Source: an uncultured Alphaproteobacteria bacterium
GTDB lineage: Bacteria > Pseudomonadota > Alphaproteobacteria > Bin95
NCBI GenBank assembly: GCA_937891825.1
Contig: CALAHN010000141.1
Span: 1 to 44,136, forward strand
Reading direction: 5' to 3'
Length of the DNA: 44,136 nucleotides
A program made the translations under genes and the position numbers. This document shows positions 29,863 to 30,868 of the stretch, one piece after another. The notes beneath the pieces are model-generated. The model ran no database searches and was not told the DNA's origin. It saw nothing but the letters and a program-made list of their open reading frames with translations. How positions within the stretch are numbered: the stretch's first letter is position 1; every line of letters begins with the position of its first letter.

Positions 29863-29902
29863 CGATGCCTCGCCGCGTTTGTTTCAGCGGCGGACACACA
29901 AG

Positions 29903-29935
29903 AACCCCTGGAGCACGCGCTCCGGGGGTTTTTTT
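29903..29935 (+). terminator. Rho-independent terminator of hppA
   Basis: A 12-bp stem, AACCCCTGGAGC with GCTCCGGGGGTT (29903-29914 with 29919-29930), includes one G-T wobble. It has a 4-nt loop and runs into T7 (29929-29935). It is a canonical intrinsic terminator and also separates hppA from the convergent toxin/immunity pair. Confidence 0.9.
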
Positions 29936-29942
29936 ATTTGCT

Positions 29943-30236
29943 TCAGCAGGCGTCGCGGGCCCGGCGGCGGAGGTCTTCGGCCCATGCGGCCAGGTCGGGG
30001 CCGAAGGCGGCGGCATCGACCTCGGCGGCGGCGAGAATCGCGGCCCAGCCGGCGTGCGGCAGGCCAAGCGACTGGATCACCGCCAGTTCCTCGGCGAGCT
30101 GAGCCGCCTCGGTTTTGCTTGCGTCCCTGAGGAAGGCTTCGGCCGGCGCCGGCCAGGGCGCCCTCCGTCGATCCCAGTCCTCATTGGCGTAGGCCTTGAG
30201 GAGTTGCCAGAGCATGCCGTCCTCATGCAGCGCCAT
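29943..30236 (-). CDS. CdiI-like immunity protein candidate
   Basis: 97 residues, acidic and helical, with no signal peptide. The start LWQLLKAYANEDWD followed by FLRD, TEAAQLAEELAVIQSLGL and AAWAEDLRR resembles small immunity proteins of contact-dependent inhibition systems (the pattern of YFHQDW-type CdiI proteins). Its start lies 5 bp after the stop of the upstream RNase A-like toxin gene, the expected toxin then immunity order. The first start is ATG 30236. ATG 30215 has a better site (GAGG with 5-nt spacing) and gives the family-like start MLWQLLKAY. It would neutralise the toxin in the cytoplasm (inference). Confidence 0.65.
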   Translation of the reverse strand: MALHEDGMLWQLLKAYANEDWDRRRAPWPAPAEAFLRDASKTEAAQLAEELAVIQSLGLPHAGWAAILAAAEVDAAAFGPDLAAWAEDLRRRARDAC

Positions 30237-30241
30237 CGCCC

Positions 30242-30868
30242 CTAGCGCTCCACATAGGCGGTCAGCAGGCGGTAGCCGGGTCGCCCGTCGTTATCCCACT
30301 TGGTCAGCACGGCGACGGCGGTGCGGCCGTCGGCGGCGTCGCCGTCCCCGTAGACGATGCGGCCGATCGGCTTATCGAACAGGCGGCGAAGGGCGAGGCG
30401 GCGCTGACTTTCATTATCGCCGAGCCACCGCCTGACCCGTTCGTCGTTCGGCTGGTGCTTGATCGTCCGGACAATGGCGATGGCCGCGGTCTCCAGGTCC
30501 GTGAAGCCGGATGACGCGGCGATGCCGTCGCGGTCTAGCCGGGCTTTCAATTCGCGATCGGACTTGCCCACATGGCGGGCGATGGCGTGGCCGCGATGCT
30601 CTCCGCCTTCCTGGCTCTCCAGCCAGCGAATGGCATTGGCGATCGCCTGCGCGCGCTCGCTTGGCTGGGCCTGGGCTTCGCCTGTCGGCGTCGCGGCCGG
30701 ACGGGGCGGCAAAACGGTTTCCGCGCCGCGGACGCCGCCCGGCGCCGCATCGCGCGCCTTGTCCGGATCCTCCTGGAGGAACCCGATCAGCAAGGCGACG
30801 CCGAGCGCGATCAACGACAGCAGAATGCGCTGCGCGCGCGACGAAAGTCCAAACCGGTTGAAAATCAT
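30242..30868 (-). CDS. Membrane-anchored RNase A-like (CdiA-CT type) toxin
   Basis: 208 residues. A basic N-terminus leads to one membrane helix (about residues 14-31, ILLSLIALGVALLIGFL) with no clear cleavage site, then a Pro/Ala/Gln linker, then a C-terminal domain from about residue 90. That domain has the RNase A-like polymorphic toxin pattern: GHAIARHVGKSD (His94, His99), LKARL (Arg110), SSGFTDLETA, WLG, and final LLTAYVER (Thr203, Tyr205). The catalytic-type His, Arg, Thr and Tyr are all kept. ATG 30868 is preferred over TTG 30874. The whole toxin is only 208 residues and is not attached to a CdiA, Rhs or other delivery protein. The immunity-like gene follows directly. Confidence 0.75.
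   Translation of the reverse strand: MIFNRFGLSSRAQRILLSLIALGVALLIGFLQEDPDKARDAAPGGVRGAETVLPPRPAATPTGEAQAQPSERAQAIANAIRWLESQEGGEHRGHAIARHVGKSDRELKARLDRDGIAASSGFTDLETAAIAIVRTIKHQPNDERVRRWLGDNESQRRLALRRLFDKPIGRIVYGDGDAADGRTAVAVLTKWDNDGRPGYRLLTAYVER

What the first reader, a model, noticed from the sequence alone, without database searches (positions are those of the whole stretch)
29943..30868. Stand-alone membrane-anchored RNase A-like toxin with a CdiI-like immunity partner
Seen: a 208-residue protein with one N-terminal membrane helix, a Pro/Gln linker and a C-terminal domain with GHAIARHVGKSD, LKARL and a final TAY. This is the pattern of the RNase A-like toxin tip of CdiA-type effectors. 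Only 5 bp later follows a 97-residue acidic protein of CdiI-like appearance. Known: such tips normally sit at the end of huge CdiA, Rhs or T6SS effectors. Inference: here the tip has been fitted directly to a short membrane anchor, with no delivery protein in view. It could be a self-acting or kin-directed toxin, a domesticated RNase or a new delivery mode. The positively charged N-terminus suggests N-in topology with the toxin domain outside the cytoplasm.
Basis: partly seen in the sequence, partly recalled or inferred. Interest (0 to 1): 0.75.

Follow-up and report, generated by a model that had tools for sequence, protein, structure and literature searches.

The report
Membrane-tethered RNase with its inhibitor gene
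An uncultured alphaproteobacterium carries a small RNA-cutting toxin domain, of the kind usually found at the tip of huge bacterial weapons, fixed to a simple membrane anchor beside the gene for its inhibitor; similar small exported pairs turn up in several other bacterial phyla, which makes it a little-described variant of a known toxin family and not a new kind of system.

Summary
Window 30242-30868(-) encodes 208 aa: one N-terminal hydrophobic segment, a Pro/Gln linker and a bacterial RNase A domain (PF18431, E 9e-22). All four active-site residues of the Y. kristensenii CDI toxin are present (H99, R110, T203, Y205). Five bases downstream, a 97-aa acidic protein is predicted to fold like that toxin's inhibitor, CdiI (5E3E chain A, Z 9.0). 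The two neighbours therefore match the two chains of one solved toxin-inhibitor complex.

It is not a broken effector. The pair, with similar lengths and the same upstream genes, recurs in two other genomes of the genus under purifying selection, and is cleanly absent in a third. This genome has no match to the T6SS sheath protein VipB or to the CdiB-type transporter ShlB.

The layout is not unique. In a biased survey, 21 of 58 relatives were short exported single-domain proteins from seven phyla. Fourteen of them have a CdiI-like partner, fused in one case. Best reading: an exported, membrane-held RNase with a cytosolic inhibitor, working like barnase-barstar. Whether it attacks rivals is open. 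Closest known: CDI RNase A tips, NCBIfam's RNase A lipoprotein, Ribocin. New variant of a known kind; interest 0.4.

The parts
30242..30868 (-). CDS of the membrane-anchored RNase A-like protein, 208 aa, ATG start
   Evidence: PF18431 E 9.1e-22
30773..30832 (-). N-terminal membrane segment, about residues 13-32; no Cys in the whole protein, hence no lipobox
   Evidence: Kyte-Doolittle peak; 17 of 20 residues identical to the G001 relative, no Cys
30617..30772 (-). variable Pro/Gln/Ala linker, about residues 33-84
   Evidence: aligns poorly within the genus, unlike anchor and domain
30254..30592 (-). RNAse_A_bac domain, residues 93-205
30572..30574 (-). H99, equivalent of catalytic His175 of CdiA-CT Ykris
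   Evidence: alignment; active-site residues from PMC9086364
30539..30541 (-). R110, equivalent of Arg186
30260..30262 (-). T203, equivalent of Thr276
30254..30256 (-). Y205, equivalent of Tyr278
29943..30236 (-). CDS of the CdiI-type inhibitor, 97 aa, acidic, all-helical, no export signal seen
   Evidence: PF18593 E 2e-5, below cut-off; model pLDDT 84; 5E3E_A Z 9.0 over 92 residues
31044..31553 (-). upstream neighbour (by eye like invasion-associated locus B, not searched by profile), adjacent to the pair in all three carriers; also present in a genome without the pair
29900..29933 (+). terminator-like hairpin of the convergent proton-pyrophosphatase gene, which bounds the pair downstream

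Best explanation
The pair is an exported ribonuclease with its own cytosolic inhibitor, working like barnase and barstar but built from the RNase A/CdiI protein pair. The hydrophobic N-terminus acts as an uncleaved signal anchor. The Sec machinery (inferred) threads the protein through the inner membrane, so that the RNase A domain hangs on the periplasmic side on a flexible linker. Any copy that folds in the cytosol before or instead of export, or that enters from outside, is bound at its active site by the CdiI-like partner encoded 5 bp downstream, so the maker's own RNA is spared. Shown here: the domain, the four active-site residues, the partner's predicted CdiI fold, joint inheritance and purifying selection, and absence of the tested CDI and T6SS delivery markers. 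Inferred: catalytic activity, binding of the two proteins, outward orientation. Open: the RNA that is cut, either RNA reaching the envelope (scavenging or protection) or RNA of a competing cell.
For: PF18431 E 9.1e-22. Four active-site residues conserved. Partner model matches CdiI of the same solved complex at Z 9.0, next best Z 2.6, and is Foldseek rank 1 at TM 0.64. Pair conserved in G001 and G003 with dN/dS 0.075 (toxin) and 0.143 (partner). Homologues in seven phyla carry signal peptides, lipoboxes or membrane helices, and 14 of 21 have a CdiI-like partner downstream or fused. Partners show no export signal by eye and so should stay in the cytosol. No match to VipB or ShlB in this genome. 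Barnase-barstar as precedent for secreted RNase plus intracellular inhibitor: PMC8625414.
Against: No biochemical data. Topology rests on weak charge bias and on homologues. Foldseek E for the partner is 2.1, so that match rests on rank, coverage and Z. Five exported relatives (four from the Thalassobaculum group, and L024) show no CdiI-like neighbour, so an inhibitor is not always needed or lies elsewhere. In L048 the inhibitor is fused to the exported RNase, which does not fit a purely cytosolic inhibitor. A complex could not be predicted with the tools.
Confidence: 0.55

Rival explanations
1. It is an inter-bacterial weapon: the envelope-held RNase is handed to neighbouring cells (membrane exchange, vesicles or an unknown contact route), enters their cytosol, and the CdiI-like partner is kin immunity.
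For: Domain and partner are those of a CDI toxin-immunity pair. Lipoprotein toxins with C-terminal CDI-type nuclease domains and cytosolic-acting immunity are known to be delivered by outer membrane exchange (SitA/SitI, PMC5562445). Secreted MafB/MafI toxins exist (PMC4287609). Related domains sit beside T6SS genes in Rhizobium tumorigenes.
Against: No delivery system found: no match to VipB or ShlB. No lipobox (no Cys). The anchor is not shared with any other toxin in the genus. One fixed site and slow divergence within the genus, with no sign of toxin swapping.
Confidence: 0.27
2. The domain faces the cytosol (N-out) and the pair is an intracellular toxin-antitoxin or phage-defence module released when the inhibitor is lost.
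For: Adjacent two-gene layout with a small acidic partner; charge bias across the helix is weak.
Against: Homologues with clear signal peptides or lipoboxes. No PADLOC match for either protein. No match in phage records. No defence neighbours seen in the ORF listing around it. Positive-inside bias favours N-in.
Confidence: 0.1
3. A degraded leftover of a longer CdiA/Rhs effector.
For: Such domains are known as tips of large proteins; relatives with 490 to over 2000 aa exist.
Against: Similar short length and same anchor in three genomes, dN/dS 0.075 for the G001/G003 pair, intact catalytic residues, intact unrelated gene directly upstream.
Confidence: 0.02

Closest known systems
CdiA-CT/CdiI of Yersinia kristensenii (PDB 5E3E; Pfam RNAse_A_bac and CdiI_2)
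   Same: RNase A domain with the same four active-site residues; partner with the predicted CdiI fold encoded directly downstream
   Different: There the domain is the tip of a huge CdiA secreted by CdiB; here it is on a single membrane segment in a genome without a CdiB match
NCBIfam NF041883, RNase A-like domain-containing lipoprotein
   Same: Short exported single-domain RNase A-like protein; profile match over residues 65-205, E 8.8e-19
   Different: 68 bits against a cut-off of 200; no Cys, hence no lipobox, here
Ribocin (RbcN) of Pseudomonas aeruginosa (PMC13189344)
   Same: Exported stand-alone nuclease with the RNase A fold; His, Thr and Tyr required for activity
   Different: Signal peptide; acts on eukaryotic ribosomes; described as very divergent in sequence from CdiA-CT Ykris; no partner gene mentioned in the parts read
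Barnase-barstar
   Same: Exported RNase with an intracellular inhibitor that protects the producer (PMC8625414)
   Different: Different RNase family (N1/T1) and unrelated inhibitor; functional analogy only
SitA/SitI of myxobacteria (PMC5562445)
   Same: Envelope-anchored short toxin with C-terminal nuclease domain and adjacent immunity gene
   Different: SitA are lipoproteins delivered by TraAB outer membrane exchange and reported only in myxobacteria

Membership tests
Bacterial RNase A branch (PF18431) | Profile match above curated cut-off | tested here: met
   78.5 bits, cut-off 27
Bacterial RNase A branch (PF18431) | Active-site His, Arg, Thr, Tyr | tested here: met
   H99, R110, T203, Y205
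Bacterial RNase A branch (PF18431) | RNase A fold | tested here: inconclusive
   The window protein itself was not modelled; a relative at 26-28% identity (L048) has a confident domain matching 5E3E_B at TM 0.87
Bacterial RNase A branch (PF18431) | Metal-independent RNase activity | not testable with these tools
   needs an enzyme assay
CdiI of RNase A toxins (PF18593 CdiI_2) | Profile match above cut-off | tested here: inconclusive
   E 2e-5 but 25.7 against 26.7 bits; genus relative E 8e-4
CdiI of RNase A toxins (PF18593 CdiI_2) | Fold of CdiI Ykris | tested here: met
   5E3E_A Z 9.0, 92 residues, rmsd 3.1; next Z 2.6
CdiI of RNase A toxins (PF18593 CdiI_2) | Binds the active site of the adjacent toxin | not testable with these tools
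   no complex prediction available
CDI (CdiBAI) system | Large CdiA exoprotein carrying the domain | tested here: not met
   208-aa ORF, short length conserved in the genus
CDI (CdiBAI) system | CdiB-type outer-membrane transporter (ShlB, PF03865) | tested here: not met
   no match in G000
T6SS effector | T6SS sheath VipB/TssC in the genome | tested here: not met
   no match in G000; one in relative G002, which lacks the toxin
NF041883 RNase A lipoprotein | Score above 200 bits and a lipobox Cys | tested here: not met
   68 bits; no Cys
SitA lipoprotein toxins | Lipobox | tested here: not met
   no Cys in the protein
SitA lipoprotein toxins | TraAB outer membrane exchange | not tested
   not searched

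The most novel reading that the evidence does not exclude
Short exported RNase A/CdiI pairs are a widespread antagonism class of their own, in which a membrane-held RNase is passed to neighbouring cells without CdiA, T6SS or Rhs carriers, by a route not yet described.
Probability: 0.2. Interest if true: 0.65.

Novelty: new variant of a known kind. Interest (0 to 1): 0.4.

Why it matters
[quoted passage not shown] Here, and in relatives from seven phyla, the same toxin-inhibitor pair travels with only a membrane anchor, lipobox or signal peptide. That makes a simple question testable in a laboratory strain: is the CdiI-type partner kin immunity, or a barstar-like guard of the producer's cytosol?

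Tried and rejected
Broken-effector reading: rejected. Phage or defence origin: no match in phage records and no PADLOC match; PHROG 25038 matches but has unknown function. Polymorphic-toxin reading through a shared N-terminus: the first 38 residues occur nowhere else in the genus. Complex by natural fusion: I folded the Maritalea toxin-inhibitor fusion L048 as a stand-in for a complex. The toxin half was confident (pLDDT above 90 for most of it), but the inhibitor half was not (about 40-55), because the aligner would not place inhibitor rows on the C-terminal half; no interface can be claimed. Solved-structure search with the partner by sequence gave nothing meaningful. VIA-align listed only three chains for the partner, so other folds are not excluded.

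Full report
WHAT IS THERE. On the minus strand, 30868-30242 encodes 208 aa and 30236-29943 encodes 97 aa, with 5 bp between. The first protein has one hydrophobic segment (about residues 13-32), a Pro/Gln linker, and residues 93-205 matching Pfam RNAse_A_bac at E 9.1e-22 and the toxin chain of PDB 5E3E (CdiA-CT of Y. kristensenii) at E 4.6e-6. A review (PMC9086364) gives the active site of that toxin as His175, Arg186, Thr276 and Tyr278. In the alignment these correspond to H99, R110, T203 and Y205 (residue letters checked). I numbered the equivalents from the spacing of the aligned motifs; the original structure paper was not available.

THE PARTNER. The 97-aa protein matches Pfam CdiI_2 at E 2e-5 but one bit under the curated cut-off. 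Its model, built from an alignment of 11 partners, is all-helical with mean pLDDT 84. The top Foldseek hit among 350,542 PDB chains is 5E3E chain A, the CdiI of the same complex (TM 0.64, E 2.1). VIA-align gives Z 9.0 over 92 residues, with the next chain at Z 2.6. Taken alone, Z 9 for a helical protein is not decisive. Together with the profile match and the position 5 bp behind the matching toxin, it is convincing. The toxin is basic (pI 9.9) and the partner acidic (4.7).

CONSERVATION. Of five genomes in the genus, three carry the gene. G001 and G003 keep the pair (toxin 204 aa) and the upstream neighbours (IalB-like gene, FMN-dependent dehydrogenase, named by eye), but have different downstream genes. 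G002 shows the empty site: the IalB-like gene and the proton-pyrophosphatase gene are separated by 400 bp with no trace of either gene. In G004 no match was found, and its contig ends near the site. Between G001 and G003, dN/dS is 0.075 for the toxin and 0.143 for the partner. Divergence of the pair between the window and G001 is similar to that of the upstream IalB-like gene, so vertical descent with loss in G002 and G004 is likely (inference). The membrane segment is better conserved (17 of 20) than the linker.

DELIVERY. The genome (99.97% complete) gives no match to the T6SS sheath VipB or to the CdiB-type transporter ShlB. The anchor region occurs nowhere else in the genus. Other secretion systems were not searched.

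RELATIVES. A genome scan with a seven-row alignment gave 55 loci, and searches of sampled genomes added more. Of 58 distinct domain sequences, I classed 21 as short exported single-domain proteins, from Pseudomonadota, Aquificota, Planctomycetota, Cyanobacteriota, Acidobacteriota, Actinomycetota and Nitrospirota. Export signals were judged by eye and by hydropathy: lipoboxes in L023 and L064, cleavable-looking signal peptides in the cyanobacterial, Thalassobaculum and other loci, membrane helix plus linker in the window genus and L045. The scan used one motif and my own query, so 21 of 58 is not an unbiased fraction. A profile of 11 partners finds a partner downstream on the same strand in 13 of the 21; in L048 it is fused to the toxin in one ORF. 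Most of those 13 partners, or close copies of them, went into the profile; L029 is an independent match (E 3e-6). The same profile, weakly, finds partners behind many longer effectors that were not used to build it. Five exported loci (L006, L032, L033, L037, L024) show none; L019 has an overlapping ORF that the profile does not recognise; L063 is cut by a contig end. In the domain tree the exported label needs at least four changes (strongly supported branches force two), so the layout probably arose more than once, though gain and loss cannot be told apart.

FOLD CHECK. The fused L048 protein was folded: its RNase half is confident and matches 5E3E_B (TM 0.87 by target length, E 1e-8); its inhibitor half is not confident. 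No statement on the interface is possible.

MECHANISM. The simplest reading is an exported, membrane-held ribonuclease with a cytosolic inhibitor, like barnase and barstar (PMC8625414). Positive-inside bias is weak here (+2 against 0; 0 against -1 in G001). The orientation therefore rests mainly on homologues with signal peptides or lipoboxes. The weapon reading has precedents in SitA/SitI (PMC5562445) and MafB/MafI (PMC4287609), but nothing here shows transfer to other cells.

NOVELTY. The domain, the partner and even short exported forms are known in part: NCBIfam names an RNase A-like lipoprotein, and Ribocin is an exported stand-alone RNase A-fold nuclease (PMC13189344). What I did not find described in the library searched is the recurring short exported RNase plus CdiI-type partner across phyla. 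That library lacks most subscription journals. I rate it a new variant of a known kind.

Noticed in passing
L048:5875-6696: Maritalea myrionectae: exported RNase A-like domain and CdiI-like inhibitor fused in one reading frame, so both would be exported together unless the internal ATG is also used.
   Followed up: partly
L006, L032, L033, L037: Thalassobaculum-type secreted RNase A-like proteins with conserved active-site motifs and no CdiI-like neighbour; in three of the four a membrane-protein gene (by eye TauE/SafE-like) follows directly.
   Followed up: partly
L008:1081-1887 and L014:646-1887: RNase A domain behind a region that looks like a phage MuF-type head protein (by eye), possibly a phage-packaged toxin.
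   Followed up: no
L010:2006-3568: Rhizobium tumorigenes plasmid: RNase A-like protein and annotated CDI immunity gene sit between hcp and vgrG of a T6SS.
   Followed up: no
L005, L022, L027, L046, L058, L065 and others: A recurring N-terminal region of about 160 aa (SPVQLAA...) with hydrophobic stretches carries the RNase A domain in many Pseudomonadota; its delivery function was not identified.
   Followed up: no
G002:C116:19317-20216: A strong T6SS VipB match in a genus member that lacks the RNase pair, while the three genomes with the pair have none.
   Followed up: no
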